From: Paenarthrobacter nicotinovorans
Lineage (GTDB): Bacteria; Actinomycetota; Actinomycetes; Actinomycetales; Micrococcaceae
Length of the DNA: 64,000 bases
Assembly (NCBI RefSeq): GCF_021919345.1
Contig: NZ_CP089293.1
Span: 1,860,001 to 1,924,000 of the forward strand
Direction: 5' to 3'
The first letter of the stretch is position 1. Each line of letters starts with the position of its first letter. The notes beneath the pieces were generated by a model, which saw only the letters and a list, made by a program, of their open reading frames with translations, searched no databases and was not told the origin of the DNA. The position numbers and the translations under genes are program-made. This document shows, one piece after another, positions 23,346-60,915 of this stretch.

Positions 23346-23427
23346 GCCCGAGTGGCGGAATTGGCAGACGCGCCGCACTCAAAATGCGGTATCGAAAGGT
23401 GTGTGGGTTCGAGTCCCACCTCGGGCA
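23346..23427 (+). tRNA. tRNA-Leu (anticodon CAA)
   Basis: Cloverleaf read by eye: 7-bp acceptor stem GCCCGAG/CTCGGGC, a D arm with GGCAGA, anticodon stem CCGCA/TGCGG enclosing the 7-nt loop CTCAAAA with anticodon CAA, an extended variable arm as in class II tRNAs, T arm GTGGG-TTCGAGT-CCCAC and discriminator A at 23427. The CCA end is not encoded. A terminator follows 7 nt later. tRNA-Leu genes are frequent integration sites, and accessory genes begin directly downstream. Confidence 0.95.
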
Positions 23428-23433
23428 CGGCAT

Positions 23434-26043: not shown

Positions 26044-26979
26044 TTAGAAGGTTAGAACCAGACGGCCTCGAACGCCGCCCGCCTCCATCGCGCGATGTGC
26101 CGCGGCTGCTTCCTCGGCCGGGTAACTTCTGGCCACCCGCGGGGTAAGAACGCCTTTCTCGATGCTTTGCCTCAGTTTCGCCAAGAGGTCCACCCGGCCA
26201 GCGCCCTGGCTGACAGAGACGTGTTCCTTCCGGATTCCGCGCCCGGGGTCTCCGCTCCACGCCCGGACGATGACCATTGTTCCGCCGTCGGCAATGTCAG
26301 GAGTGACTTCAACGTTCTGCACGGAGGCGTCCACCAATCCGGCCACGCCGGCCGGTTGAAGATCTCGGATACGTCCTGCGACGTCCACCCCGCGCCGGAC
26401 AACATGGTGCGCTCCCAAACCTCGTACTAGTGCTTCGTCAGCTTCTGAAGCATCTGCAATAACTTGTAGCCCTGCAGCCCGCGCGAGCTGAATGACGTAT
26501 CCACCGAGTGCCCCAGCTGCACCGGTCACCGCAATTATCGCGCCCTTCGAGAGTGCCAAGGTGTCCAAGGCCATGACAGCAGTCAGTCCATTCATCGGGA
26601 GAGTTGCGGCGGCGAGGCTATCCATCCCCTTCGGTGTTGGAAATACGTGGGTGGCCCTCACGATAACGTGCTCTGCATAAGCGCCTCCACGGGGGCCGAA
26701 CGGGAGGACGATCGCTGTGACATCCTCGCCAACCCATAGGGATACTCCTTCGCCAACCTCGTCTATCGTTCCAGCCGCCTCCATGCCGACGACGTAGGGC
26801 CGTTCCAAAGCTGTCATGGCTTGCTGACTCATGCCGGTGCGGGCCATTGTGTCTGCGGGGTTGACCGTGGCTGCCCGCACACGGATGCGGACCTCTCCTG
26901 GCCCGGCGTGCTGCTCTGGACGGTCGAATACATGCAGGACTTCAGGCCCTCCGAACTTACTAAATCCAATAGCTTTCAC
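26044..26979 (-). CDS. NADP-dependent zinc-less oxidoreductase, quinone-reductase type (MDR)
   Basis: Medium-chain dehydrogenase/reductase of the quinone oxidoreductase/enoyl-reductase type. The N-terminal GroES-like domain (about residues 1-120) lacks the zinc cysteines of alcohol dehydrogenases, and the Rossmann domain has VTGAAGALGGYVIQLARAAG. I chose GTG at 26979 (311 residues), with AAAAGGAG nine bases before it; the open frame runs 14 codons further up without a ribosome site. It reduces quinones or alpha,beta-unsaturated carbonyls in relatives. It may be co-transcribed with the MFS gene downstream. Confidence 0.87.
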   Translation of the reverse strand: MKAIGFSKFGGPEVLHVFDRPEQHAGPGEVRIRVRAATVNPADTMARTGMSQQAMTALERPYVVGMEAAGTIDEVGEGVSLWVGEDVTAIVLPFGPRGGAYAEHVIVRATHVFPTPKGMDSLAAATLPMNGLTAVMALDTLALSKGAIIAVTGAAGALGGYVIQLARAAGLQVIADASEADEALVRGLGAHHVVRRGVDVAGRIRDLQPAGVAGLVDASVQNVEVTPDIADGGTMVIVRAWSGDPGRGIRKEHVSVSQGAGRVDLLAKLRQSIEKGVLTPRVARSYPAEEAAAAHRAMEAGGVRGRLVLTF

Positions 26980-27121
26980 TGGACAGGACTCCTTTTGGCT
27001 GAGGGTGCGCGTTCTCCACAAGCGGGCTCACCGGCGCTTGGTGTCAATTTTTAGGGTCGGTTCGCAATCCCTGCCGGGACCTTGAGCCACAACGGTGCGG
27101 CTCGGTCGCGTGGTGGTGGTT

Positions 27122-28597
27122 TTAGAGTTGGATGCCGGTGTATTTGGTTTCTTGGTAGGCGTTGAGGCCTTCGGTTCCGCCTTCGCGGTGGAGTCCGGAT
27201 TGGTTGGTTCCGCCGAAGGGGGCTGCGGGGTTGGAGATGAGTCCGCGGTTGATGCCGGTCATGCCTGCGTCGATGGCGTTTGCGACGCGTAGTGCGCGGG
27301 AGAGGTTTTCGGTGAAGATGTAGGAGGCTAGTCCGTAGGGGGTGTTGTTGGCCTCATGGATTGCTTCGTTTTCGGTGTCGAAGGTGTAGATAGCTGCGAC
27401 GGGACCGAAGATTTCCTCGGTGCGGATCTCTGCGTTGGTGGGGATGTTGGTCAGGACCGTGGCCGGGTAGTAAGAACCAGGGCCCTGGGGAATAGTTCCA
27501 CCCGTGAGGCAAACGGCACCCTTGGCGACGGCGTCCGTTACTAGGGCAGCCACCGTCTTTACTTGTTTGGCGTCCACGAGAGGTCCCAGGTCCGTGTCGG
27601 GGTGTGCGCCGTCGCCGAGACGAGCAGCAGCCATGCGTTCGGTGAAGCGGGCGGTGAATTCGGCGGCGATGTTGTTTTGGACGTAGATGCGGTTGGCGCC
27701 GACGCAGGATTGGCCTCCGTTGCGGAGTTTGGCGAGCATGGCGCCCTCGACAGCTTGGTCAAGGTCGGCGTCGTCGAACACGATCAGGGGTGCGTTGCCG
27801 CCGAGTTCCATGGAGGTGTTCATGACGTTTTCGGCTGCTTGGGCCAAGAGCGCACGCCCGACCTGTGTGGAGCCGGTGAAGGAGATCTTGCGGACTCGTG
27901 AGTCCTTCATGATGGCGGCGATAACGTCGCGGGAGTTGTTGGTGGTGATGACGTTGACAACACCGGCGGGGGCGCCTGCTTCTTCGAGAACCCGCGCCAG
28001 TAATAGCGAAGTCAAAGGGGTCAGCTCTGCGGGCTTCAGGATGGTGGTGCATCCTGCGGCGAGGGCCGGGGCGATCTTCCGTGCGCCCATCGCGAGCGGG
28101 AAGTTCCAGGGCGTGATGAGCAGGGAAGGGCCGACGGGGCGTTTGGAGACGGCGATCTGGTAGTTGCCGCCGGGTTCGACGCCGTATTGGCCTTCGGTGT
28201 GTATCCGGCCGGCGGATTCGGCGAACCAGCGGAAGAAACCGGCGCCGTAGTCGACTTCGGTTTGGGCTTCCGGGAGGGGCTTGCCCATTTCTGCGGTGAT
28301 CAGTGCCGCGAACTCGTCGCGGCGGGCCAGGATTCCTTCGTAGGTGCGGAAGAGGATGTCGGCACGTTCCCGGGCAGGGGTGGCGGCCCAGGCTGGTTGT
28401 GCGGTGGCGGCGGCATCGACTGCCGCGAGACCGTCGTGAACTGTTGCAGAGGGAACTTCCGCGATGGGTTCTCCGGTGGCCGGGTTGGCGACGGTGAGGT
28501 TTGCGTTGTTGCTCGAGGGGATCCAGGCCCCGCCGATGGGCATGAGGTTCTCCGGGAATCCAAGTGGGGGAGCGGGGGCAGTGGTGGTGTTTTCCAT
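27122..28597 (-). CDS. NAD(P)-dependent succinate-semialdehyde-type dehydrogenase
   Basis: Aldehyde dehydrogenase superfamily, closest by eye to GabD/succinate-semialdehyde dehydrogenases. The 491-residue protein has ITPWNFPLAM near 161-170, FTGSTQVG near 240-247, the general base Glu264 (MELGGN) and nucleophile Cys298 (GGQSCVGANR), and the late motif EEIFGPV. It is the last gene of a minus-strand operon after an aminotransferase and a two-subunit ThDP decarboxylase, so it probably oxidises the aldehyde made by that decarboxylase. Succinate semialdehyde, malonate semialdehyde or sulfoacetaldehyde are all possible. The gap to the upstream gene is 75 nt. Confidence 0.9.
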   Translation of the reverse strand: MENTTTAPAPPLGFPENLMPIGGAWIPSSNNANLTVANPATGEPIAEVPSATVHDGLAAVDAAATAQPAWAATPARERADILFRTYEGILARRDEFAALITAEMGKPLPEAQTEVDYGAGFFRWFAESAGRIHTEGQYGVEPGGNYQIAVSKRPVGPSLLITPWNFPLAMGARKIAPALAAGCTTILKPAELTPLTSLLLARVLEEAGAPAGVVNVITTNNSRDVIAAIMKDSRVRKISFTGSTQVGRALLAQAAENVMNTSMELGGNAPLIVFDDADLDQAVEGAMLAKLRNGGQSCVGANRIYVQNNIAAEFTARFTERMAAARLGDGAHPDTDLGPLVDAKQVKTVAALVTDAVAKGAVCLTGGTIPQGPGSYYPATVLTNIPTNAEIRTEEIFGPVAAIYTFDTENEAIHEANNTPYGLASYIFTENLSRALRVANAIDAGMTGINRGLISNPAAPFGGTNQSGLHREGGTEGLNAYQETKYTGIQL

Positions 28598-28672
28598 TGA
28601 AGTTCTCGTGCTTTCAGCAGGTTGGGTTCCTGCCGGGCCCGTTGGGGCCCGGCAGGAAGGAGGGGGGTGTGG

Positions 28673-29257
28673 TTAGGACGCTTCGGCCAAACGTGGGGTG
28701 AGCCAGTTTTGGAAGCGGTTGCCGTGGGTGACGGGGTCGATGAGGAGGAGTTTGGTGCCGGGTTCGTTGCCGGGTTCGGTGCGGGTGTGGATGAACCAGG
28801 GCCCGTCTTGGGTGAGGGTTTGTTTCAGGGCGAGGGTGAGTTCTTCGGGGTTGTCGGCGCGGAGGACTTTCAGGTCGACGGATTCGGCGAAGCGTCCGAG
28901 GTCGATGGTGACGGCTTGGGTTGGGATGGAGGCGGTGGAGGCGTAGACGCCGTTATCGAGCAGGATGATGACGAGGTTTTCGGGGGCGAGGTAGCCGGCG
29001 GTGATTGCTGAGCCGGGGTTCATGAGGAGGGAGCCGTCGCCTTCGATGACCACGGTGCGGGTGATGGGGGTGTTTTTGATGGCTTGGGCGATGCCGGTTC
29101 CGACGGAGATGGCCAGGCCCATGGCGTCCAGGAGGTAGAGGTGGTTGGGTCGGTCGGCGATGGAGGCCAGTTCGCGGGAGGTCGCGGCGCAGGTTGCGAT
29201 CACGGGAACGTCCGGGGTGGTGTCAACGATGGCTTGGAGGGCTTCGATGCGTTTCAT
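28673..29257 (-). CDS. ThDP-dependent decarboxylase, beta subunit (ComE-like)
   Basis: C-terminal, diphosphate-binding half of a thiamine-diphosphate decarboxylase made as a separate subunit, as in sulfopyruvate decarboxylase ComDE and phosphonopyruvate-decarboxylase-like enzymes. The 194-residue protein shows the ThDP motif starting GDGSLLMNPGS near residue 94 and closing with LLDNGVY about 28 residues later, and the aminopyrimidine-side segment DAMGLAISVGTGIA. Its ATG overlaps the stop of the alpha-subunit gene by 4 nt, indicating equimolar synthesis. It needs the alpha subunit for the catalytic Glu. The substrate, a 2-oxo acid, is not fixed by the sequence. Confidence 0.85.
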   Translation of the reverse strand: MKRIEALQAIVDTTPDVPVIATCAATSRELASIADRPNHLYLLDAMGLAISVGTGIAQAIKNTPITRTVVIEGDGSLLMNPGSAITAGYLAPENLVIILLDNGVYASTASIPTQAVTIDLGRFAESVDLKVLRADNPEELTLALKQTLTQDGPWFIHTRTEPGNEPGTKLLLIDPVTHGNRFQNWLTPRLAEAS

Positions 29258-29805
29258 GCTTTTGCCTTTGCGTCTTTGGGGTCGAAGAATTCCATGAGGA
29301 CCACGACGGGTCGGTAGGTCATGCGGGCGTGGTTGCCGGCTTCGGCGACGGTCGCGCCCCAGTCCTGGGCGGTGTTGCGTCGGTCGACCTGGAAGACGGG
29401 GATGTTCGTGGAGGCCAGCAACGCGGGGACGGGTGCGGAGATGGTGTGGATCATGGAGTTGTACTCGCCGAGCCCGCCGCGGGTGTTCGCGACGATGAGC
29501 AACGGCAGGTGGTAGGACACGGCGAACGTTGTCAGGGCGGTCAGGGCGTTGCCGAAGCCGTTGTCCTGCATGATGATGACCCCGAATTTCCCGGCGAACG
29601 GGTAGGCGCCAACAACACCGATGGCTTCTTCTTCGCGGGAGACGGGGTAGACCAGGGGCAGGTCCCCGTTGGTCTGGGCGGTGAGGACGCCGTTGATGAT
29701 CGGGGCGATGGACGCGGAGGGCACGTAGGCGACGCCGTCGGGGGCCAGGCCCACGATCGCGTCCACCACTTCGGTGTGGCGGTCCTGGGTAATGGTGGTA
29801 GTCAT
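29254..29805 (-). CDS. ThDP-dependent decarboxylase, alpha subunit (ComD-like)
   Basis: Pyrimidine-binding (PYR) domain of the two-subunit ThDP decarboxylase. The 183-residue protein carries SREEEAIGVV near residue 56 with the conserved Glu that activates the cofactor, and MQDNGFGNALTALTTF typical of the sulfopyruvate/phosphonopyruvate decarboxylase N-terminal domain. It begins 6 nt after the aminotransferase stop, so the transaminase product is its likely substrate. Single-chain pyruvate-type decarboxylases have both domains fused; here they are split with an ATGA overlap. Confidence 0.85.
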   Translation of the reverse strand: MTTTITQDRHTEVVDAIVGLAPDGVAYVPSASIAPIINGVLTAQTNGDLPLVYPVSREEEAIGVVGAYPFAGKFGVIIMQDNGFGNALTALTTFAVSYHLPLLIVANTRGGLGEYNSMIHTISAPVPALLASTNIPVFQVDRRNTAQDWGATVAEAGNHARMTYRPVVVLMEFFDPKDAKAKA

Positions 29806-29811
29806 GGGTGG

Positions 29812-31029
29812 TCAGGCTCCCTTGGGGTGTGGTGTGGTCAGGGTCTGGACGATGCGTCGCAGGCCTTCGGTGAGGTCATCGATGTGGCAGGCGTATGAGA
29901 TGCGGATGGAGTGGGTTCCGCCGTCGGGGTCGAACGCGGTCCCTGGCACGACGGCGACGCGTTGTTCATCGAGGAGCCGTAGCGCCAGTTGTTCGGCTGG
30001 TTCGGCGGTCTCGGGTGTGTAGGTGAGGTAGAAGTAGAACGCGCCGTCGGGCTGGCTGACGGTGACGCCTGGAATGCCGGTGAGGATCTTCAGGCCGGCT
30101 TTGCGTCGTTCCTGGAATTCGGCGCGCATCGACTCTGCGTCGGGACCCGCGTGGCGGAGGGCTGCTGCAGCGCCGGGTTGGAGGAAGGTGGGGGCGCAGA
30201 CGGTGGTGTACTGGCGCACCCTCAGTGCCGGTGTGATGAGTTCTTTGGGGCCGGCGAGCCAGCCGAGGCGCCAGCCGTCCATGGCGAAGGCTTTGGCGAA
30301 GCCGCCTACGACCAGAGTCCGTTCGCGGAGGTTTCCTACCGCCGCCGGGGATTGGTGCTGGATCTCGTCATAGACGAGGTCGGCGTAGATTTCATCGGAC
30401 ATCAGCAGCGCGTCGGTCGGTTCCAAAACGGTGGCCAGCTTTTCGATGTCCTCAGCAGTGGCGACACCCCCGGTGGGATTATTCGGGGTGCAGAGGATCA
30501 CCATACGTGTCGCGGGGGTGATCGCGGCGGCGATCGCGTCGATATCAAGGCGGTAGTCATCGGTAGCGTCCAACCGGACAGGCACCGGGGTCGCCCCGGC
30601 CAGGCGGATGCAGGACTCGTAGTGGGCCCAGGCCGGTACGGGGAAGATCACTTCGTCACCGGGCCCGCAGAAAGCCATCAAGGCCAAGAACACCGCTTCG
30701 TTCGCGCCGATCGTGATGAGCACTTCGGTGCCCGGGTCATAGGTGGTCCCGCGGCGCTCTTGCAGATACGCACTGATCGCCTCACGCAGATCCAGCGTTC
30801 CCGCGTTCGGGCCGTAGTGGACCTCCCCGCGGTCCAACGACGCAGCCGCAGCGTCCTTGACTACCTGCGGGGTATCGAAATCCGGGCGCCCGATCTCGAA
30901 GTGGTACACCTTCTCACCCGCAGCGTCCAGCGCCGCAGCCTTATCAAAAATGGCCCTGATCGGCGACGGACCAATATCCCGCAACCGATCAGCAAACCGT
31001 CCAAACCGTGTAGTGGTAGCGGTACTCAT
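29812..31029 (-). CDS. PLP-dependent aminotransferase, class I/II
   Basis: Fold-type I aminotransferase of 405 residues related to AspC/alanine-type enzymes. The PLP lysine is Lys246 in GGFAKAFAMDGWRLGW, the substrate-binding segment CTPNNPTGG is at 180-188, SDEIYADLVY carries the PLP-pairing Asp and Tyr, and an Arg near the C terminus should bind the substrate carboxylate. A GGAG ribosome site precedes the ATG. It is the first gene of the operon that continues with the ThDP decarboxylase and aldehyde dehydrogenase, and is divergent from a GntR regulator. It presumably turns the imported amino acid into the 2-oxo acid; the amino acid is unknown. Confidence 0.88.
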   Translation of the reverse strand: MSTATTTRFGRFADRLRDIGPSPIRAIFDKAAALDAAGEKVYHFEIGRPDFDTPQVVKDAAAASLDRGEVHYGPNAGTLDLREAISAYLQERRGTTYDPGTEVLITIGANEAVFLALMAFCGPGDEVIFPVPAWAHYESCIRLAGATPVPVRLDATDDYRLDIDAIAAAITPATRMVILCTPNNPTGGVATAEDIEKLATVLEPTDALLMSDEIYADLVYDEIQHQSPAAVGNLRERTLVVGGFAKAFAMDGWRLGWLAGPKELITPALRVRQYTTVCAPTFLQPGAAAALRHAGPDAESMRAEFQERRKAGLKILTGIPGVTVSQPDGAFYFYLTYTPETAEPAEQLALRLLDEQRVAVVPGTAFDPDGGTHSIRISYACHIDDLTEGLRRIVQTLTTPHPKGA

Positions 31030-31185
31030 AGGGATACTCCAATTTCAGGGGGATGCGGTGGTGGAATTGAGCCTGCATCGAAAGCAGGCGGCCGTCTTGG
31101 ATTCAGCATCCCGCGATCCGGACAGGTTCCGGATGGAGTGCTGGGATAGTGTGGTAGACGTGACCAGCAAGCCTCCAACTGCAAG

Positions 31186-31197
31186 AATGTTAACATT
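31186..31197. promoter_or_regulatory. GntR operator, perfect palindrome AATGTTAACATT (copy 1)
   Basis: Perfect 12-nt palindrome ending at the base before the gntR ATG, in the 168-bp gap shared with the divergent aminotransferase operon. An identical copy lies at 32023-32034 before the ABC importer genes, and TGTTAACA recurs at 32150-32157. FCD-type GntR proteins bind short palindromes of this kind. The position suggests autorepression. Confidence 0.7.
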
Positions 31198-31917
31198 ATG
31201 AAATCTGACACCACAGCAAATGTCAAGAACGGAACCCTTCGCGCACCCCTGAAACGTCGCGGAATGGCCCAGGATGTCGCGGACCGGATCCGTGACGCAA
31301 TTCTGGCCGGGGAAATACCTCCGGGGGAACGGATCAATGAAGTGGAGATGGCCGCGTCCCTATCCGTCAGTCGCGGACCAGTGCGGGATGCCATCGTTTT
31401 GCTGCGGCAGGAGGGCCTGCTTCAAGGCGACTGGCACCGAGGATCGCGGGTTACCGTCTTTACGCACAAAGACCTTGAAGAGATCTACTCGCTCCGGTAC
31501 TCGATAGAGTTGCTCGCCGTTCAGCGGCTGATTGCACACCGCACCGGGAAGGATTTGGACCTCCTTCAAGTGCGTGCCGAGGACATTGAGCGGGCGGCCG
31601 CCCTGGGGGATAGGGGTGACATGCTCCAGTCGGACATTGCGTTTCATGATGCGATCTACGCCTGTGCCGGTCATGAGAGGTTGGAGCAGGTTTGGTTGGG
31701 TCTGCGTTCGCAGATCGCTTTGCTTCTCCTCAATCGACAGCAAGGCCATGATGATTACAGGGCCCGCATTGGCCCAGAGCATTGGGAAATGTTCCGCGTC
31801 ATCCGCGACCAGGATGGTGCGAAGGCTGAAGAGCTGGTGCGTGAGCACATCGAGACTGCGTTCGAAAGAATCAAAGCCGACCTCGACAGCAAAGAACGCC
31901 TCCAAGGTGCAGGCTAG
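31198..31917 (+). CDS. GntR-family transcriptional regulator (FCD subfamily)
   Basis: Repressor-type regulator of 239 residues. The N-terminal winged helix (about residues 15-80) contains DRIRDAILAGEIPPGERINE and the recognition segment LSVSRGPVRDAIVLLRQEG; the C-terminal alpha-helical FCD ligand domain has the conserved D-x4-H metal-binding spacing in SDIAFHDAIY and later histidines. It lies between the divergent aminotransferase-decarboxylase operon and the ABC importer, with matching palindromes before itself and the importer, so it most likely controls both in response to a pathway carboxylate. Confidence 0.9.
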   Translation: MKSDTTANVKNGTLRAPLKRRGMAQDVADRIRDAILAGEIPPGERINEVEMAASLSVSRGPVRDAIVLLRQEGLLQGDWHRGSRVTVFTHKDLEEIYSLRYSIELLAVQRLIAHRTGKDLDLLQVRAEDIERAAALGDRGDMLQSDIAFHDAIYACAGHERLEQVWLGLRSQIALLLLNRQQGHDDYRARIGPEHWEMFRVIRDQDGAKAEELVREHIETAFERIKADLDSKERLQGAG

Positions 31918-32022
31918 TCACACGTCCTTCTGAAAGTTCGCCAGCGGACGAAGCCCGGTGCCGGCCTCGTCCGCGTCCGGAGCTCCCGCATCGACTTGCC
32001 CTCTCCTGATCTTTGCCGTACA

Positions 32023-32034
32023 AATGTTAACATT
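32023..32034. promoter_or_regulatory. GntR operator, perfect palindrome AATGTTAACATT (copy 2)
   Basis: Identical to the palindrome before the GntR gene and located about 90 bp before the ABC-ATPase start, in the 206-bp intergenic gap. Two exact 12-mers flanking one regulator gene are unlikely by chance. Confidence 0.7.
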
Positions 32035-32123
32035 CTTACTTTCGTAATTTAGGTCACATGGAGCCCGGGGTGAGAAACCTGCACCTACCCCCACGACCGT
32101 CGAGACGAAATATCCCCGAACGA

Positions 32124-32921
32124 ATGGCGAACATGGAACTGCAAAAGTTTGTTAACAGCACTTCTGAGGCTGCTGCCGACGAGAAGAAGGCGATGATCTC
32201 CATCAGGGGGGTCAACAAGCATTTCGGACCTCTGCACGTGCTCCGTGATGTCAATCTTGAGGTTGCCCAGGGCCAGGTTGTGGTTGTCTTGGGTCCCTCT
32301 GGCTCGGGAAAGTCGACTCTCTGCCGAACTATCAACAGGCTGGAGACCGTCGAATCCGGCACGGTCGCCGTCGACGGCAAGCCTCTCCCCAAGGAAGGCA
32401 AGGCGCTGACGCGCTACAGGGCCGACGTCGGAATGGTCTTTCAGTCATTCAACCTCTTCGCCCACAAAACCATTCTCGAAAACGTCATGCTTGCACCACT
32501 CAAGGTGCGACGTATCGGAAAGGCCGAGGCTCAAACGCGGGCAATGGCCCTGCTCGAGAGGGTGGGTATAGCAAATCAGGCGCATAAACTCCCCGCCCAG
32601 CTTTCGGGTGGACAGCAGCAGCGTGTAGCCATTGCCCGGGCGTTGGCCATGGAGCCGAAGGTGATGCTCTTCGACGAACCTACCTCGGCTCTTGACCCGG
32701 AAATGGTCACCGAAGTACTGGATGTCATGACGTCTCTGGCGCAAGGAGGCATGACGATGCTCGTAGTCACGCACGAGATGGGCTTCGCTCGACGCGCCGC
32801 CGACCGGGTGGTGTTCATGGCCGATGGTCAGATCCTCGAAGACACAACGCCGGACCGGTTCTTTGACAACCCAACCACCGAGCGGGCCAAAGAGTTCCTC
32901 GGCAAGATCCTCAGCCACTGA
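32124..32921 (+). CDS. Polar amino acid ABC transporter ATPase
   Basis: Nucleotide-binding subunit of a PAAT-type importer (HisP/GlnQ family). Walker [10 protein letters not shown], the Q-loop FQSFNLF, signature LSGGQQQR, Walker [14 protein letters not shown] and the switch histidine in VVTHEM are all present. The start is uncertain: ATG 32124 gives 265 residues, but ATG 32193 (preceded by GAGAAGAAGG) fits the usual family N terminus [12 protein letters not shown], and a third TGTTAACA core lies at 32150-32157 inside the extension. It heads a four-gene transporter operon with its binding protein and two permeases. Confidence 0.93.
32150..32157. promoter_or_regulatory. Possible third GntR half-operator TGTTAACA
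   Basis: Eight-base palindromic core identical to the centre of the two flanking 12-mers, located within the first codons of the ATPase frame as annotated. If functional, the true ATPase start is probably the downstream ATG at 32193. Confidence 0.35.
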
Positions 32922-32952
32922 CAAGTCACCCCAATCTAGAAAGCAGCACATC

Positions 32953-33789
32953 GTGAAGCTCAAGTTCCTGGCCATTCCGGCCGCAGCGCTGTTCCTTGCC
33001 AGCTCGATCGCCGGTTGCTCCGGTGCATCCGACAAAGCCAAAACAGTTGAAGCCAGCGCACAATCGGGCCACCTCACCATCGGTATTTCCTTCGATCGCC
33101 CAGGGCTTGGAATCAAGACTCCCGACGGATCATTCAAGGGTTTCGATGTTGACGTTGCCAAGTATGTCGCCAAGAAGCTTGGCGTCGAGGAGTCTTCCAT
33201 CACCTGGAAGGAAGCGACTCCGGCGCAGCGAGAGAGCCTGATCCAGAACGGGCAGGTGGACTATGTGGTGAACACCTACAGCATCAATGACGCCCGAAAG
33301 GAGAAGGTCGCCTTCGCGGGGCCTTACTTCCTGGCTGGCCAGTCGCTCCTGGTTCGTTCTGACTCCACAGACATCACGGGCCCGGAGTCCCTGAATGGGG
33401 GCAAAAAGTTGTGCTCGGTGACCGGTTCCACACCAGCACAGAACATCAAGAAGAACTACAGCAAGGACGCGCAGCTTCAGGAGTACGACACCCCTTCCGC
33501 ATGCGTTGAAGCCCTGAAGAGCGGCGCCGTTGACGCAATGACCACGGATGATATTCAACTTGCCGGTTATGCAGCTGCCAATCAGGGAAAGCTGAAGCTT
33601 GTTGGCAGTACCTTCAGCAAGGAGAACTACGGCATTGGTCTGAAGAAGGATGACACCGCGGGCCGTGCCAAGATCAACGACGCCATTCAGTCCATGATCG
33701 ACGACGGATCGTGGGCCAAAGCGTTTGAGAGCAACGTTGGACCGTCCGGTTATGCATTGCCCGCCACGCCAGTGGTAGACCGCTACTAG
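32953..33789 (+). CDS. ABC amino acid-binding lipoprotein
   Basis: Extracellular solute-binding protein (SBP_bac_3 type) of the PAAT importer. GTG start at 32953; the signal peptide ends in the lipobox SIAGC, so the mature protein is anchored at about Cys21 by diacylglycerol. The class-typical segments GFDVDVAKYVAKKLG, the NTYSINDARKEKVAFAGPY strand and a C-terminal IQSMIDDGSWAKAF are present; 278 residues. Relatives bind glutamate, glutamine or other polar amino acids; the ligand here should be the substrate of the co-regulated aminotransferase pathway. Confidence 0.92.
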   Translation: MKLKFLAIPAAALFLASSIAGCSGASDKAKTVEASAQSGHLTIGISFDRPGLGIKTPDGSFKGFDVDVAKYVAKKLGVEESSITWKEATPAQRESLIQNGQVDYVVNTYSINDARKEKVAFAGPYFLAGQSLLVRSDSTDITGPESLNGGKKLCSVTGSTPAQNIKKNYSKDAQLQEYDTPSACVEALKSGAVDAMTTDDIQLAGYAAANQGKLKLVGSTFSKENYGIGLKKDDTAGRAKINDAIQSMIDDGSWAKAFESNVGPSGYALPATPVVDRY

Positions 33790-33822
33790 TCGGGCAGCCA
33801 GACAAGAGACTGGATAGTTAAC

Positions 33823-34503
33823 ATGAACATCCTCAACGAATACGGGGATCAGATCCTGGCGGCCTTCCTGATCACCCTGCAGCTCACGGCGCTGTCTGCA
33901 CTGGGCTCGTTGGTATTGGGCACTGTCCTGACTGCCATGCGGGTATCACCGATTTGGGCGATGCGGACGCTTGCCACCGGGTACGTGAACATTATCCGGA
34001 ATACCCCTTTGACCCTTGTGGTGCTTTTCGCATCGTTCGGATTGGCACAGCAACTCGGTATCACCTTGGCAGATCCAAAGTCCCCCACATCCATCACGGA
34101 CAGCTCGTTCCGGCTGGCCGTCCTGGCCTTTAGCCTGTACACGTCGACGTTCGTATCCGAAGCGCTAAGGGCAGGTATTAATACGGTCCCTCCTGGCCAG
34201 TCGGAAGCGGCCCGGTCGTTGGGCCTGAACTTCGTGCAGGGCTTGGGCCACATCGTCTTGCCGCAGGCCTTCCGGGCGGTCATTGCGCCTTTGGGCAGCA
34301 TCCTCATTGCGTTGACCAAAAACACAACGGTTGCGTCAGTCATAGGCGTGGCTGAAGCCGCCCTCCTGATGAAGGAAATGATCGAGAACACCTCCGCCCT
34401 CATCGTCGTTGGGCTGATCTTCGGGGCCGGCTTTATGTGCCTGACTCTTCCGACAGGTGCGGCTTTCGGATACCTAAGCAGAAAGTTTGAGGTAAAGCGA
34501 TGA
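33823..34503 (+). CDS. Polar amino acid ABC transporter permease 1
   Basis: Membrane permease of the HisM/GlnP family, 226 residues with about five membrane segments. The EAA-type cytoplasmic loop that docks the ATPase is seen as SEAARSLGLNFVQGLGHIVLPQAFRAV. It shares a 4-nt ATGA overlap with the second permease gene, so the two are made together as a heterodimer. It starts 33 nt after the binding-protein stop. Confidence 0.92.
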   Translation: MNILNEYGDQILAAFLITLQLTALSALGSLVLGTVLTAMRVSPIWAMRTLATGYVNIIRNTPLTLVVLFASFGLAQQLGITLADPKSPTSITDSSFRLAVLAFSLYTSTFVSEALRAGINTVPPGQSEAARSLGLNFVQGLGHIVLPQAFRAVIAPLGSILIALTKNTTVASVIGVAEAALLMKEMIENTSALIVVGLIFGAGFMCLTLPTGAAFGYLSRKFEVKR

Positions 34504-35375
34504 GCAACACTCAAGCGCCCATCAACAACCTGTATGACGTCCCCGGGCCCAAGGGGCAAATTCTGAACGTCGTCGTCAGCGCTCTGTGCGTCGTTGGGCT
34601 GGCAGCGGCCGGTTGGTTCGTGATGTCAGCCCTAGCAGGCAAGGGGCAACTGGCGCCGGAGAAGTGGCAGCCATTTCTCACGCCGGAAATGTGGCAGACC
34701 TACCTTCTGCCCGGGATCGTGGGAACACTTCAGGCTGCGGTCTTTGCCATCATCCTGGCCATAATTCTGGGAATCCTGCTGGGCATCGGGCGTCTCTCCG
34801 ACAACCGGTTGGTGCGCTACGCGTGCGCCGCTGTGGTGGAGTTCTTCCGGGCAATTCCGCTGCTGATTCTGATGATTTTCTGCTTTCAGCTCTTCGCCGA
34901 CTACGACCTGTTCCCGTCCACCGATCTTGCGGTTGCGGCGGTAATTACCGGCCTTGCCCTGAGCAACGGGGCGGTCATTGCAGAAATTGTGCGCGCAGGA
35001 ATCAAAGCCATTCCACGAGGCCAAGGGGAAGCTGCTGTGGCTCTTGGCCTCGGCAGTGGACAAACACTCCGGATGATTCTCCTGCCCCAGGCGATCACGG
35101 CAATGCTCCCGGCAATCGTCGCTCAACTGGTAGTAGCGCTGAAGGACACTGCGCTTGGCTACCAAATCACCTACGTGGAAGCCGTGCGGCAAGGCATCCA
35201 GGCCGGCTCGGCCTATTCAAACTACATACCGGCGCTCGTAGTGATCGCGCTCGTGATGATTGTCATCAATCTGGGCCTGTCGCGGCTTGCAACCTATATT
35301 GAGCTTCGACTCCGAAGCGGCCGCAAGGCTCCTGTCGAATCAAAGGTTGGCGAGATCCTGGTTCCCCAGAACTAG
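34500..35375 (+). CDS. Polar amino acid ABC transporter permease 2
   Basis: Second permease of the importer, 291 residues, longer than permease 1 through an N-terminal segment with its own membrane helix (about 20-45). The coupling loop GEAAVALGLGSGQTLRMILLPQAI is present. The C-terminal tail is basic and cytosolic. It is the last gene of the transporter operon; no clear terminator is seen in the 17 nt before the convergent regulator gene. Confidence 0.92.
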   Translation: MSNTQAPINNLYDVPGPKGQILNVVVSALCVVGLAAAGWFVMSALAGKGQLAPEKWQPFLTPEMWQTYLLPGIVGTLQAAVFAIILAIILGILLGIGRLSDNRLVRYACAAVVEFFRAIPLLILMIFCFQLFADYDLFPSTDLAVAAVITGLALSNGAVIAEIVRAGIKAIPRGQGEAAVALGLGSGQTLRMILLPQAITAMLPAIVAQLVVALKDTALGYQITYVEAVRQGIQAGSAYSNYIPALVVIALVMIVINLGLSRLATYIELRLRSGRKAPVESKVGEILVPQN

Positions 35376-58528: not shown

Positions 58529-59429
58529 CGCACCGATAGCCAGCTTCGAAGATGTGGTTGGCCGCTATGTGAACCTGCGTTCGTCCGGCCGCGACCAGCG
58601 CATCTACTTCGAAGAAGCCGGCAGCGGACCTGTCCTGCTTTGCCTGCATACGGCCGGCGCCGACTCCAGGCAGTTCCGGCATCTGCTTAATGATCCGGAG
58701 ATCACCAGCCGTTTCCGGGTGGTGGCCTTCGACCTTCCCTGGCACGGCCGGTCCCTCCCGCCCGAAGGCTGGTGGGAAGCGGAGTATCTACTCACAGCCG
58801 ATGCCTATGTCGCAATTGTCCGGGACTTCGCGGCAGCCCTGGATATCGAGCAACCCACAGTTATTGGTTGCTCCATGGCCGGGTCCCTGGTGCTGGAGCT
58901 GGCCCGAAGGCATTCTGATGAAATCGGGGCAGTCATAGGGTTGTCGGGGGCGCTCAAGGTCAACGGGCGCTTCCAGGACTGGTCCTTGCGGCCGGACGTC
59001 AATGCCCAGCAGTCGGTCCCCAGTTGGACGTCGAGCCTCATGGCACCGCAAAGCCCCGAGGTATCCCGCCGCGAAGTCTGGTGGATCTATAGCCAAGGCG
59101 GCCCCGGTATCTACCGCGGTGACACCTACTTCTACTCCCAGGACCTGGATCTCCGGGGCAGAGGGCATGAGATCGACACAAATGCCTGCCCGGTGTACTT
59201 GCTCACGGGGGAGTATGACCACGCCTGTACTCCAGCCGACACGGCAGATGCAATCGCCGAAATTCCTGGTGCGAAGGGCGGTGCCATGAAGGACATTGGG
59301 CACTTCCCGATGGCGGAGAACTACCCGCTGTTCAAAACCTATCTCCTGCCGATTCTCCAAGAACTCCACACGGATGTCGTCGGTAATGATCTTGATTCAC
59401 TCGCCCTGGAAGGAACCCATAATGCCTGA
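58515..59429 (+). CDS. Alpha/beta hydrolase
   Basis: 304-residue alpha/beta-hydrolase-fold enzyme. Oxyanion segment LCLHTAGADSRQF, nucleophile Ser120 in GCSMAG (a G-x-S-x-A variant of the usual G-x-S-x-G elbow), a likely acid in TGEYDHACTPADT and the catalytic His in DIGHFPMAENYP. The ATG has GGAAAGG upstream and overlaps the SCP2-like gene. It probably opens an ester, lactone or enol-lactone; the acid released would feed the adjacent semialdehyde dehydrogenase after oxidation. It overlaps the next gene by 8 nt. Confidence 0.88.
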   Translation: MSSTDAPIASFEDVVGRYVNLRSSGRDQRIYFEEAGSGPVLLCLHTAGADSRQFRHLLNDPEITSRFRVVAFDLPWHGRSLPPEGWWEAEYLLTADAYVAIVRDFAAALDIEQPTVIGCSMAGSLVLELARRHSDEIGAVIGLSGALKVNGRFQDWSLRPDVNAQQSVPSWTSSLMAPQSPEVSRREVWWIYSQGGPGIYRGDTYFYSQDLDLRGRGHEIDTNACPVYLLTGEYDHACTPADTADAIAEIPGAKGGAMKDIGHFPMAENYPLFKTYLLPILQELHTDVVGNDLDSLALEGTHNA

Positions 59430-60915
59430 AACGGCTACTGTCACGCCTGAGCTTGAGCGCCTTCTGCTCTCGACTATTCCCACCGGCCTGCTGATCAACG
59501 GCGAGTGGCGCGATGCCAGCGGCGGCGGGACGTTCGCCGTCGAAGACCCCGCAACGGGAAAGAAGCTCCTGGAGATAGCGGACGCCACCAGCGCCGACGC
59601 GATGGCAGCACTGGATGCTGCCGACGCCGTTCAGGCGTCTTGGGCGCGGACTGCCCCTCGTGTCCGGGCGGAGATCCTGCGGCGTGGTTTTGAACTTGTT
59701 ACCGAACGGGCCGAGGACTTTGCGTTGCTGATGACCTTGGAGATGGGCAAGCCGCTTGCCGAGGCTCGCGGCGAAGTGACCTACGGCGCGGAGTTCCTGC
59801 GGTGGTTCTCCGAGGAAACCGTCCGTGACTACGGGCGCTACCTCACATCCCCTGAGGGGAAGAACAAGATCATGGTCCAACGCAAGCCCGTCGGGCCGTG
59901 CCTGCTGATCACACCCTGGAACTTCCCGCTGGCGATGGCCACCCGAAAGGTTGCCCCGGCCATTGCTGCCGGCTGCACCATGGTCCTCAAGCCAGCGAAG
60001 TTCACGCCGCTGACGTCGCTGTTGTTCGCCCAGGTGATGCAGGAAGCGGGCCTGCCTGCCGGTGTGCTGAACGTCGTCGCTTCATCATCCGCGTCAGCAA
60101 TCTCGGGTCCCCTGATGAAGGACTCGCGCCTTCGGAAGGTCTCCTTCACGGGCTCGACGCCGGTTGGCCGACGGCTGCTCGCGGACGCGTCCCACAATGT
60201 GCTGCGGACGTCGATGGAGTTGGGCGGCAATGCCCCGTTCATCGTGTTCGAGGACGCTGATGTGGATAAGGCAGTCCAGGGCGCAATGGCAGCGAAGATG
60301 CGCAACATGGGTGAGGCCTGCACAGCAGCCAACCGTTTCCTTGTGCACGAATCGGTCGCAGAAGACTTCACCTCGAAGTTTGCCGCGGCCATGGGTTCAC
60401 TGACGCTGGGCCGAGGCACTGACCCGGGTACCGCCGTCGGGCCCATCATTGATGGTGGTGCCCGCAAGGATATCCACGCCCTGGTCACCGAAGCAGTAGA
60501 GCAAGGAGCCACAGTGGCAACCGGCGGTGCACCGCGCGACGGCGTGGGCTACTTCTATCCGCCGACCGTCCTGGCCAATGTCCCGCACGATGCAACGATT
60601 CTGGCCAGCGAAATTTTCGGTCCCGTTGCTCCGGTCACCACGTTCCGCACTGAGGAAGAGGCCATCCGCCTGGCAAATGCATCCGAGTACGGACTGGCTT
60701 CCTACCTCTTCAGCCGCGACCACGCACGGATGCTCCGCGTAGCAGAACAGATCGAGTTCGGCATGGTCGGCTTCAACAGCGGGATGATCTCGAATGCTGC
60801 TGCTCCGTTCGGCGGCGTCAAACAGTCCGGACTCGGCAGGGAAGGCGGAGCCGAAGGCCTCGCTGAATACACCACAGCGCAGTACATCGCCATCCCCGAC
60901 CCGTACGCGGACTAA
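59422..60915 (+). CDS. NAD(P)-dependent succinate-semialdehyde-type dehydrogenase, second copy
   Basis: 497-residue aldehyde dehydrogenase of the GabD type. Motifs: ITPWNFPLAM (163-172), FTGSTPVG (242-249), base Glu266 (MELGGN), nucleophile Cys300 (MGEACTAANR), EIFGPV. ATG 59422 has GGAAGGA upstream and overlaps the hydrolase gene by 8 nt. It is homologous to, but clearly distinct from, the dehydrogenase at 27122-28597. In its operon it would oxidise the semialdehyde formed from a hydroxy acid. Confidence 0.9.
   Translation: MPETATVTPELERLLLSTIPTGLLINGEWRDASGGGTFAVEDPATGKKLLEIADATSADAMAALDAADAVQASWARTAPRVRAEILRRGFELVTERAEDFALLMTLEMGKPLAEARGEVTYGAEFLRWFSEETVRDYGRYLTSPEGKNKIMVQRKPVGPCLLITPWNFPLAMATRKVAPAIAAGCTMVLKPAKFTPLTSLLFAQVMQEAGLPAGVLNVVASSSASAISGPLMKDSRLRKVSFTGSTPVGRRLLADASHNVLRTSMELGGNAPFIVFEDADVDKAVQGAMAAKMRNMGEACTAANRFLVHESVAEDFTSKFAAAMGSLTLGRGTDPGTAVGPIIDGGARKDIHALVTEAVEQGATVATGGAPRDGVGYFYPPTVLANVPHDATILASEIFGPVAPVTTFRTEEEAIRLANASEYGLASYLFSRDHARMLRVAEQIEFGMVGFNSGMISNAAAPFGGVKQSGLGREGGAEGLAEYTTAQYIAIPDPYAD

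What the first reader, a model, noticed from the sequence alone, without database searches (positions are those of the whole stretch)
27122..35375. Candidate undescribed amino-acid catabolic regulon: importer plus aminotransferase, split ThDP decarboxylase and semialdehyde dehydrogenase
A minus-strand operon encodes aminotransferase, two-subunit ThDP decarboxylase and a GabD-type dehydrogenase, with gaps or overlaps of 75 nt or less. A GntR/FCD regulator and a four-gene polar-amino-acid importer lie divergently, and identical AATGTTAACATT palindromes precede the regulator and the importer. Together they spell amino acid import, transamination, decarboxylation and oxidation to an acid. Possible substrates are cysteate (to sulfoacetate), aspartate, glutamate or a non-protein amino acid. 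I know of no named pathway with exactly this set.
Basis: partly seen in the sequence, partly recalled or inferred. Interest (0 to 1): 0.8.

Follow-up and report, generated by a model that had tools for sequence, protein, structure and literature searches.

The report
Regulated acidic amino acid breakdown genes
A soil actinobacterium carries a rare, self-contained set of genes that looks built to import an acidic amino acid, strip its nitrogen, remove carbon dioxide and oxidise the remainder to a usable acid; the parts are ordinary but the combination, its enzyme subfamily and its switch appear undescribed.

Summary
A minus-strand operon (aminotransferase, two-subunit ThDP decarboxylase, GabD-type aldehyde dehydrogenase) lies divergent to a GntR/FCD gene and a four-gene amino-acid importer. 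AATGTTAACATT occurs exactly twice in the 4.48 Mb genome, before the regulator and before the importer. The same site, inside a 24-bp perfect palindrome, precedes the aminotransferase operon in a Brevibacterium whose GntR is 63% identical: the best evidence for one regulon.

The cysteate reading is disfavoured. Both ThDP subunits miss the curated sulfopyruvate-decarboxylase cut-offs; the beta subunit falls outside the ComE/phosphonopyruvate branches and lacks their Gln motif. The dehydrogenase is SSADH-like. The importer's binding protein keeps the Arg and Thr that hold an acidic side chain in M. tuberculosis GlnH, but not its Trp. Four related operons carry 5-oxoprolinase-type genes.

My reading: catabolism of an acidic, probably glutamate-type amino acid through a 2-oxodiacid and its semialdehyde to a diacid. 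The exact substrate is unresolved (substituted glutamate, glutamate or aspartate type). No enzyme activity or DNA binding was shown. New variant of known kinds, moderate interest.

The parts
27122..28597 (-). GabD/SSADH-type aldehyde dehydrogenase (491 aa)
   Evidence: PF00171 536 bits; TIGR01780 SSADH 519.7 bits, below its cut-off of 646.35; Arg (GARK) and Arg (KLRNGGQSC, 6 residues before Cys) at the SSADH carboxylate-binding positions (roles from PMC10599462); the Ser in QSGLHREG as third residue is placed from memory
28673..29257 (-). ThDP decarboxylase beta subunit (PP/TPP-binding domain)
   Evidence: PF02775 above cut-off; phmmer to 9iz3_B (RhiEF beta) 1.8e-21; GDG...DN ThDP motif
29254..29805 (-). 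ThDP decarboxylase alpha subunit (PYR domain)
   Evidence: TIGR03845 78.9 bits, below its cut-off of 147.95; PF02776 20.4 bits, below its cut-off of 26.8; phmmer to 9iz3_A 7e-11; AlphaFold2 pLDDT 85.7 with best folds AzcBC and RhiEF, TM 0.72-0.75
29812..31029 (-). class I/II PLP aminotransferase (405 aa)
   Evidence: PF00155 237 bits; none of the 25 best NCBIfam models shown, of 80, reaches its cut-off; at E<=1e-100 found only inside the cluster, in 3 of 6 relatives' genomes
31186..31197 (.). AATGTTAACATT, candidate GntR operator 1 in the AT/GntR intergenic region, abutting the annotated GntR ATG and 156 bp before the AT start
   Evidence: conserved in Brevibacterium L006
31198..31917 (+). GntR/FCD transcriptional regulator; true start may lie downstream
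   Evidence: PF00392 and PF07729 above cut-offs; 63% identical over 220 aa to the L006 GntR, which begins at window residue 14
32023..32034 (.). AATGTTAACATT, candidate GntR operator 2, 23 bp (or 89 bp) before the ATPase start
32058..32921 (+). polar amino acid ABC transporter ATPase (start at 32058 or 32124)
   Evidence: PF00005; GlnQ model 322.5 bits, below its cut-off of 379
32953..33789 (+). SBP_bac_3 lipoprotein solute-binding protein (GTG start inferred; longest ORF from 32824)
   Evidence: PF00497 above cut-off; Arg147, Thr162, Ser164, Arg169 and Asp250 of M. tuberculosis GlnH kept, Trp232 replaced by Pro
33823..34503 (+). ABC permease 1
   Evidence: PF00528 above cut-off
34500..35375 (+). 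ABC permease 2
   Evidence: PF00528 above cut-off

Best explanation
A GntR-controlled accessory catabolic regulon for an acidic alpha-amino acid, most likely of the glutamate type (a substituted glutamate, or glutamate itself). The ABC importer brings it in. The aminotransferase turns it into a 2-oxodiacid. The split ThDP enzyme decarboxylates this to an omega-carboxy aldehyde (a succinate-semialdehyde-type compound). The GabD-type dehydrogenase oxidises that to a diacid entering central metabolism. GntR binds AATGTTAACATT before its own gene/the divergent operon and before the importer, and is presumably released by the substrate or its oxo acid. Shown by sequence: gene order, families, cofactor and catalytic motifs, the two unique palindromes and their conservation beside a 63% identical regulator. 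Inferred: the reactions, their order, the substrate class and the sign of regulation.
For: (1) The palindrome occurs twice in 4.48 Mb. An exact copy within a 24-bp palindrome lies 86 bp before the AT-ThDP operon in Brevibacterium L006, and a 2-mismatch copy lies 45 bp before its GntR gene. At up to 2 mismatches it is absent from the fetched stretches of the 7 other core loci, which show no comparable GntR (best 28-29% where one is present). (2) SBP: GlnH Arg147 and Thr162, side-chain contacts of the acidic ligand (PMC6069109 passages), are conserved in the window SBP and its 45% own paralog, but not in 4 other own paralogs. (3) The ALDH fits SSADH best (519.7 bits) and has the Arg pair; the SafD sulfoacetaldehyde model is not among the 25 best shown of 44, i.e. 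not above 255.7 bits. (4) In 4 of 9 core-clade loci (L003, L004, L089, L090) the order is GntR-AT-ThDPab-PxpABC-MFS-YcsI with a divergent ALDH, a 5-oxoprolinase-type supply of glutamate-like acids (family scans on L003/L004, the other two by similarity). (5) L001 has a D-2-hydroxyacid dehydrogenase in the AT's place; in sister clade 2, L037/L038 carry L-2-hydroxyglutarate oxidase LhgO above its cut-off. (6) At E<=1e-100 the AT occurs only inside the cluster in the 6 genomes searched.
Against: The ALDH is below the SSADH cut-off, and Arg pairs are also proposed to bind sulfonates (PMC10599462 passages). L003's PxpC is far below the 5-oxoprolinase equivalog cut-off (204.6 vs 500), and the four genomes with this operon have 3-6 PxpA copies. 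Sister-clade enzymes sit beside unlike pathways (hydroxyaspartate-lyase-like, sugar-acid dehydratase-like, LigK), so the family's substrates vary. 3 of 9 core loci lack the AT and 2 of 9 lack the GabD-type ALDH. The SBP lacks GlnH's Trp232 (Pro here; Tyr in 5eyf and the own paralog). At up to 2 mismatches the Brevibacterium genome has 25 sites against 5 for the control, and one 1-mismatch site lies beside an unrelated GntR and LigK-like genes, so the motif is less exclusive there. Glutamate needs no such route, since 2-oxoglutarate is already central.
Confidence: 0.5

Rival explanations
1. Plain glutamate (or 5-oxoproline) to succinate bypass: the split enzyme is a 2-oxoglutarate decarboxylase and, with GabD, circumvents 2-oxoglutarate dehydrogenase, which actinobacteria hold back through GarA (OdhI in Corynebacterium, recalled). 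This is the narrow form of the best explanation.
For: Acid-type SBP signature, SSADH-type ALDH, PxpABC in 4 related operons, LhgO neighbours in clade 2. GarA inhibition of glutamate catabolism through the TCA cycle is stated in PMC6069109 (passages).
Against: The genome has three other ALDHs of 53-54% identity and another importer's SBP of 45% identity that keeps the Tyr. The window SBP differs from glutamate binders at that Trp/Tyr position (Pro here). Dedicated enzymes for a central oxo acid seem wasteful.
Confidence: 0.2
2. Cysteate to sulfoacetate: AT makes sulfopyruvate, the ThDP pair is a ComDE-type sulfopyruvate decarboxylase, and the ALDH makes sulfoacetate.
For: Both subunits match the sulfopyruvate decarboxylase models best (78.9 and 125.2 bits). 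A GabD-like enzyme oxidises sulfolactaldehyde, with an Arg pair proposed to bind the sulfonate. Relative L002 has an SsuA-like transporter and TauD starting 1.5 kb downstream.
Against: Scores are well below cut-offs (147.95, 221.5). The beta-subunit clade is separated from ComE and Ppd by a long 100/100 branch. All 15 outgroup beta rows have Gln in the TGxQ position, 0 of 33 clade rows do. Identity to the ComDE of a DHPS-like cluster is 28/33%. The ALDH is not SafD-like. PxpABC is unexplained.
Confidence: 0.12
3. Aspartate or 3-hydroxyaspartate type: AT gives oxaloacetate (or a derivative), ThDP decarboxylation gives malonate semialdehyde, ALDH gives malonate.
For: The SBP residues fit Asp as well as Glu. 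Clade-2 loci of the L008 type pair the enzyme with a threo-3-hydroxyaspartate ammonia-lyase-like protein (L008 scanned, 323.6 bits vs cut-off 452), and L098 with LigK above cut-off, both oxaloacetate producers.
Against: Those are in the sister clade with a different ALDH type. PxpABC and the SSADH-type ALDH of the core clade fit C5 better. Oxaloacetate is itself central.
Confidence: 0.15
4. Phosphono or phosphinic amino acid (phosphonoalanine, phosphinothricin-like) giving a phosphono acid.
For: GntR's best NCBIfam hit is PhnR (113.4 bits vs cut-off 271.5); RhiEF is the nearest solved relative by sequence and among the nearest by fold; L002's SsuA-like protein has a marginal PF12974 phosphonate-binding match (28.9 vs 27).
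Against: No phosphonate-breakdown gene among the core-locus neighbours scanned; the single-chain Ppd model gives 107.8 (beta) and 41.1 (alpha) against 312.5; the Gln motif is absent; the PhnAcAld_DH model scores 266.9, about half of SSADH.
Confidence: 0.07

Closest known systems
RhiEF phosphonopyruvate decarboxylase (PDB 9iz3/9iz4; PMC12141560 passages)
   Same: heteromeric ThDP decarboxylase with separate PYR and PP subunits; top PDB sequence hit and among the top folds
   Different: biosynthetic (rhizocticin); 23% identity in the fold alignment; has the STGGQ motif that this clade lacks
ComDE sulfopyruvate decarboxylase
   Same: split alpha/beta, adjacent genes, best-scoring named models
   Different: below cut-offs, beta in a separate clade, Gln motif absent, different gene company
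AzcBC alpha-imino acid decarboxylase (9u8q-s; title only) and LumK/LumL heterocycle decarboxylase (PMC12746152 passages)
   Same: split ThDP decarboxylases with unusual substrates; AzcBC is a top fold match and its beta chain also lacks the Gln
   Different: other substrates; LumKL sequences were not compared here
Cyanobacterial 2-oxoglutarate decarboxylase plus SSADH (PMC10418658 passages)
   Same: same reaction pair as proposed under the 2-oxoglutarate reading
   Different: not the split ComDE-type clade studied here (single chain: recalled); no importer, AT or GntR unit known to me
GabD/SSADH and the GabD-like sulfolactaldehyde dehydrogenase RlGabD (PMC10599462 passages)
   Same: Arg/Arg residues for an acidic tail
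   Different: this ALDH is below the SSADH cut-off and sits in a different operon
Arginine transaminase pathway AruH/AruI/dehydrogenase (recalled, no call)
   Same: works alike: transaminase, ThDP decarboxylase, aldehyde dehydrogenase
   Different: basic substrate, single-chain AruI; the Arg residues in this ALDH argue against a basic aldehyde

Membership tests
ComDE sulfopyruvate decarboxylase | NCBIfam equivalog cut-offs TIGR03845 (147.95) and TIGR03846 (221.5) | tested here: not met
   78.9 and 125.2 bits
ComDE sulfopyruvate decarboxylase | beta subunit groups with ComE | tested here: not met
   core plus clade 2 (33 rows) form their own 100/100 branch; only one ComE row was in the tree, and alpha was not treed
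ComDE sulfopyruvate decarboxylase | decarboxylates sulfopyruvate | not testable with these tools
   needs an enzyme assay
Split (heteromeric) ThDP decarboxylase | separate PYR and PP domain genes, catalytic Glu and GDG...DN motif | tested here: met
   alignment; fold of alpha
GabD succinate-semialdehyde dehydrogenase | TIGR01780 cut-off 646.35 bits | tested here: not met
   519.7 bits
GabD succinate-semialdehyde dehydrogenase | Arg/Arg carboxylate-binding residues and catalytic Cys | tested here: met
   residue roles from PMC10599462
Polar amino acid ABC importer (GluABCD/GlnH type) | SBP_bac_3, BPD_transp_1 x2 and ABC_tran above Pfam cut-offs | tested here: met
Acidic amino acid-specific SBP | GlnH side-chain contacts Arg147, Thr162, Trp232 | tested here: inconclusive
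   Arg and Thr kept, Trp replaced by Pro
GntR/FCD regulator | PF00392 and PF07729 above cut-off | tested here: met
GntR/FCD regulator | binds AATGTTAACATT | not testable with these tools
   conservation only; EMSA needed
5-oxoprolinase PxpABC (in relatives L003/L004/L089/L090) | PxpA and PxpC curated cut-offs | tested here: inconclusive
   scored on L003 only: PxpA subfamily met (325.8 vs 226), PxpC equivalog not met (204.6 vs 500)

The most novel reading that the evidence does not exclude
A previously undescribed actinobacterial clade of two-subunit ThDP decarboxylases acts on five-carbon 2-oxodiacids (2-oxoglutarate or 4-substituted relatives), and in this organism forms the core of a new GntR-switched pathway taking an acidic, probably non-protein, amino acid to a succinate-type diacid. 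Related operons feed the same oxo acid from lactams (PxpABC) or 2-hydroxy acids.
Probability: 0.45. Interest if true: 0.65.

Novelty: new variant of a known kind. Interest (0 to 1): 0.5.

Why it matters
Many close relatives of the alpha subunit are named 'sulfopyruvate decarboxylase' by one source (JGI names; NCBI mostly says only 'thiamine pyrophosphate-binding protein'), which would credit these soil actinobacteria with organosulfonate metabolism. If my reading is right, that name should be changed, a new acidic amino acid pathway becomes testable with four gene products and one binding protein, and a compact regulator-operator pair becomes available. The varied gene company of the 33 clade members offers a ready set for mapping substrate range in this enzyme family.

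Tried and rejected
Specificity residue idea (note): I first matched a beta-subunit Ala to the ZmPDC I472 / BFDC A460 specificity site (recalled). The alignment to BFDC, with recalled BFDC numbering, puts the equivalents at the invariant Ser107/Thr108, so the argument was dropped. Wider regulon: at 2 mismatches the own genome has 8 sites against 6 for the control; G1114 (Brevibacterium) 25 against 5, G1110 16 against 3, G1111 6 against 6. I did not follow these one by one, and claim only the exact sites. The one 1-mismatch site of G1114 lies between another GntR and a gene row with a LigK-like aldolase (L144). Exact copies on Brevibacterium contig C23 are an inverted duplicate of the same region at a contig end and were not counted; L005 and L006 are likewise two contigs with the same locus. 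A 1-mismatch site of G1110 on contig C54 is not in L001. The YdiJ-like FAD/FeS gene in L006 (305.3 bits vs cut-off 1350) may belong to a neighbouring glyoxylate-type unit (BhcA-like gene upstream), so it is not used as evidence for 2-hydroxyglutarate. Genomic island: tRNA-Leu at 23346-23428, but no copy of its 3' end in the window at up to 3 mismatches, so not shown. Sigma-70 promoter-like sites: none in 30900-32200 or 26900-29300 (consensus ill suited to actinobacteria). Literature: none of the listings of searches showed a paper on this gene set; only 27, 29, 33, 50, 82 and 88 were aimed at it, and the library lacks most subscription journals. Importer context in relatives: no SBP match in 389 other family genomes at E<=1e-95, with only the five best first-look candidates scored per genome, so no substrate clue from there. 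Rows dropped: L011 (beta frame broken) and L005 (duplicate of L006) were left out of the beta tree; L016, L018, L023 and L025 were also left out.

Full report
What is there. The window lies at C1:1860001-1924000 of a 4.48 Mb genome. G268, which the tool places in the same genus, carries the same locus as L002 of Pseudarthrobacter sp. NamE5, and the closest beta subunit is from Arthrobacter sp. ISL-30. The minus-strand operon runs AT, ThDP alpha, ThDP beta, ALDH with a 6-nt gap, a 4-nt overlap and a 75-nt gap. GntR/FCD and the importer (ATPase, SBP, two permeases) run the other way. The SBP most likely starts at a GTG near 32953, giving a lipoprotein signal; the longest ORF begins at 32824.

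The switch. AATGTTAACATT is the only perfect 12-bp palindrome, of 25 distinct ones in the window, that occurs twice. It is found nowhere else in the genome at up to one mismatch. One copy lies between the divergent AT and GntR genes, directly before the annotated GntR ATG and 156 bp before the AT start. The other lies 23-89 bp before the ATPase start. In Brevibacterium L006, whose GntR is 63% identical over 220 aa, an exact copy within a 24-bp perfect palindrome lies 86 bp before the AT-ThDP operon, and a 2-mismatch copy lies 45 bp before the GntR gene. The fetched stretches of the 7 other core loci show no such GntR and no copy at up to 2 mismatches; whether their genomes hold the GntR elsewhere was not searched. 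This links regulator, operator and operon across Micrococcaceae and Brevibacteriaceae. Against it: at up to 2 mismatches the Brevibacterium genome has 25 sites against 5 for the control, not followed up, and one 1-mismatch site sits beside another GntR. DNA binding itself is inferred.

The enzymes. The ThDP pair is a heteromeric decarboxylase. Alpha models as a PYR domain (pLDDT 85.7) whose best folds are AzcBC and RhiEF. Beta carries the GDG...DN motif. The nearest named models are the sulfopyruvate decarboxylase subunits, but both scores are well below cut-off (78.9 vs 147.95; 125.2 vs 221.5). A tree of 48 beta subunits puts the window in a core clade of 9 (93/87; 8 of them 99/98), inside a 33-member actinobacterial clade set off by a long 100/100 branch from ComE and phosphonopyruvate decarboxylase (some outgroup rows are long branches). 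After DN..Y, all 15 outgroup rows have a Gln (TGxQ), and none of the 33 clade rows does. RhiEF beta has it too, while the AzcBC beta chain, an imino acid enzyme, does not. Only two of the 15 outgroup rows have a function suggested by both annotation and neighbours. The ALDH matches SSADH best (519.7 bits, cut-off 646.35), with the two Arg that hold the carboxylate in human SSADH; the Ser partner is placed from memory. The paper read in passages assigns such an Arg pair to sulfonate in sulfolactaldehyde dehydrogenase, so these residues indicate an acidic tail but not which acid. None of the 25 best AT models shown reaches its cut-off. In 6 relatives' genomes the AT was found at E<=1e-100 only inside the cluster, in 3 of them, with one doubled by assembly.

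The importer. The SBP aligns with M. tuberculosis GlnH so that Arg147, Thr162, Ser164, Arg169 and Asp250 are kept. The paper (passages) gives Arg147, Thr162 and Trp232 as side-chain contacts. Trp232 is Pro here, while 5eyf and the own 45% paralog have Tyr. Four further own paralogs lack the Arg and Thr. I read this as an acidic amino acid, with a distal pocket unlike that of plain glutamate binders. A close SBP match (E<=1e-95, five best candidates scored per genome) was seen in 1 of 390 family genomes, the own one.

Distribution. The alpha subunit was seen in 5 of 395 family genomes at E<=1e-20, of which only the own and G268 belong to the core clade. At tighter cut-offs it was seen in 8 of 396 genomes of the order, 1 of 394 of the class, the own, and 18 of 390 of the family of Saccharopolyspora spinosa. 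The samples overlap and were drawn by the tool.

Gene company. Core clade (9 loci, own included): AT in 6; GabD-type ALDH in 7; PxpABC-MFS-YcsI behind AT-ThDPab in 4 (L003, L004, L089, L090); a D-2-hydroxyacid dehydrogenase directly before ThDPab in 1 (L001); Tct transporter genes nearby in 2 (L006, L091). L003's PxpA passes its subfamily cut-off but its PxpC misses the 5-oxoprolinase equivalog, and the four genomes with this operon have 3-6 PxpA copies, so the lactam may not be 5-oxoproline itself. The sister clade (24 tree rows plus the broken L011) has a Sad/GabD1-type SSADH-like ALDH in 12 of 25 loci (L007 and L008 scanned, the rest by similarity), LhgO above cut-off in 2, RidA and a threo-3-hydroxyaspartate ammonia-lyase-like protein in the L008 type, an enolase-superfamily sugar-acid dehydratase-like protein in 7 (L103 scanned, 235.4 bits vs cut-off 500), and LigK-type RraA in L094-L098 (L098 scanned). 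The common theme may be a supply of 2-oxo acids with an acidic tail, but the substrates clearly vary.

Interpretation. I commit to catabolism of an acidic alpha-amino acid, most likely glutamate-type, through a 2-oxodiacid and an SSA-type semialdehyde to a diacid (about 0.5 with the substrate class; about 0.75 for the import-transaminate-decarboxylate-oxidise scheme alone). Plain glutamate would make it a 2-oxoglutarate-dehydrogenase bypass. A substituted glutamate explains better why a dedicated decarboxylase and an altered SBP pocket are needed.

Known or new. Each part belongs to a known kind. The heteromeric enzyme class is known from ComDE, RhiEF, AzcBC and LumKL, and the reaction pair of 2-oxoglutarate decarboxylase plus SSADH is known from cyanobacteria. 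The clade, the operon with importer and GntR operator, and the proposed substrate range were not seen in the listings of my searches of the held library (aimed at it), which lacks most subscription journals. Hence 'new variant of a known kind', moderate interest.

Noticed in passing
L094-L098 (fetched relatives): Clade-2 ThDP pairs sit beside a LigK-type aldolase (L098 scanned, 382.9 bits vs cut-off 304.5), amidohydrolase-like genes (one scanned below cut-off, one by eye) and an MFS-like gene in five genomes, suggesting that a related decarboxylase takes part in aromatic acid breakdown.
   Followed up: partly
L037 and L038: LhgO (L-2-hydroxyglutarate oxidase, above cut-off), a GntR gene and a TRAP-TAXI transporter lie next to a clade-2 ThDP pair: a possible 2-hydroxyglutarate unit.
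   Followed up: partly
L008, L009, L011, L102, L104: An MFS gene, RidA, a ThDP pair and a Sad-type ALDH recur together; in L008, L009 and L011 a threo-3-hydroxyaspartate ammonia-lyase-like PALP enzyme lies directly before the pair (L008 scanned), in L102 and L104 a 47-48% relative lies several kb away.
   Followed up: partly
L007, L092, L093, L099-L101, L103: MFS, GntR, ThDP pair, a Sad-type ALDH (6 of 7) and an enolase-superfamily sugar-acid dehydratase-like protein form a conserved unit (L103 scanned).
   Followed up: partly
window 59296-60915: A second ALDH (54% to the operon's) follows an alpha/beta hydrolase-like gene and precedes an MFS-like gene, near a GntR-like gene (55808) and a PuuD-like gene (62746); labels by eye, not scanned.
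   Followed up: no
window 23346-23428: tRNA-Leu (CAA) at the point where GC falls from about 0.64 to below 0.60; a possible integration edge, but no repeat of its 3' end in the window.
   Followed up: partly
L054 (Bradyrhizobium plasmid): A distant split ThDP pair lies with a Glu/Leu/Phe/Val dehydrogenase, an ALDH, an ABC transporter and CoA-transferases: perhaps an independent version of the same amino acid to acid logic.
   Followed up: no
G1114 and G1110 genomes: Near-copies (up to 2 mismatches) of the palindrome exceed the reversed control, 25 vs 5 and 16 vs 3; unexplained. Five of those in G1114 are AATGTTGACAAT.
   Followed up: no
Brevibacterium L143 (contig C23): An inverted duplicate of the AT-operon upstream region at a contig end, probably an assembly artefact.
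   Followed up: partly
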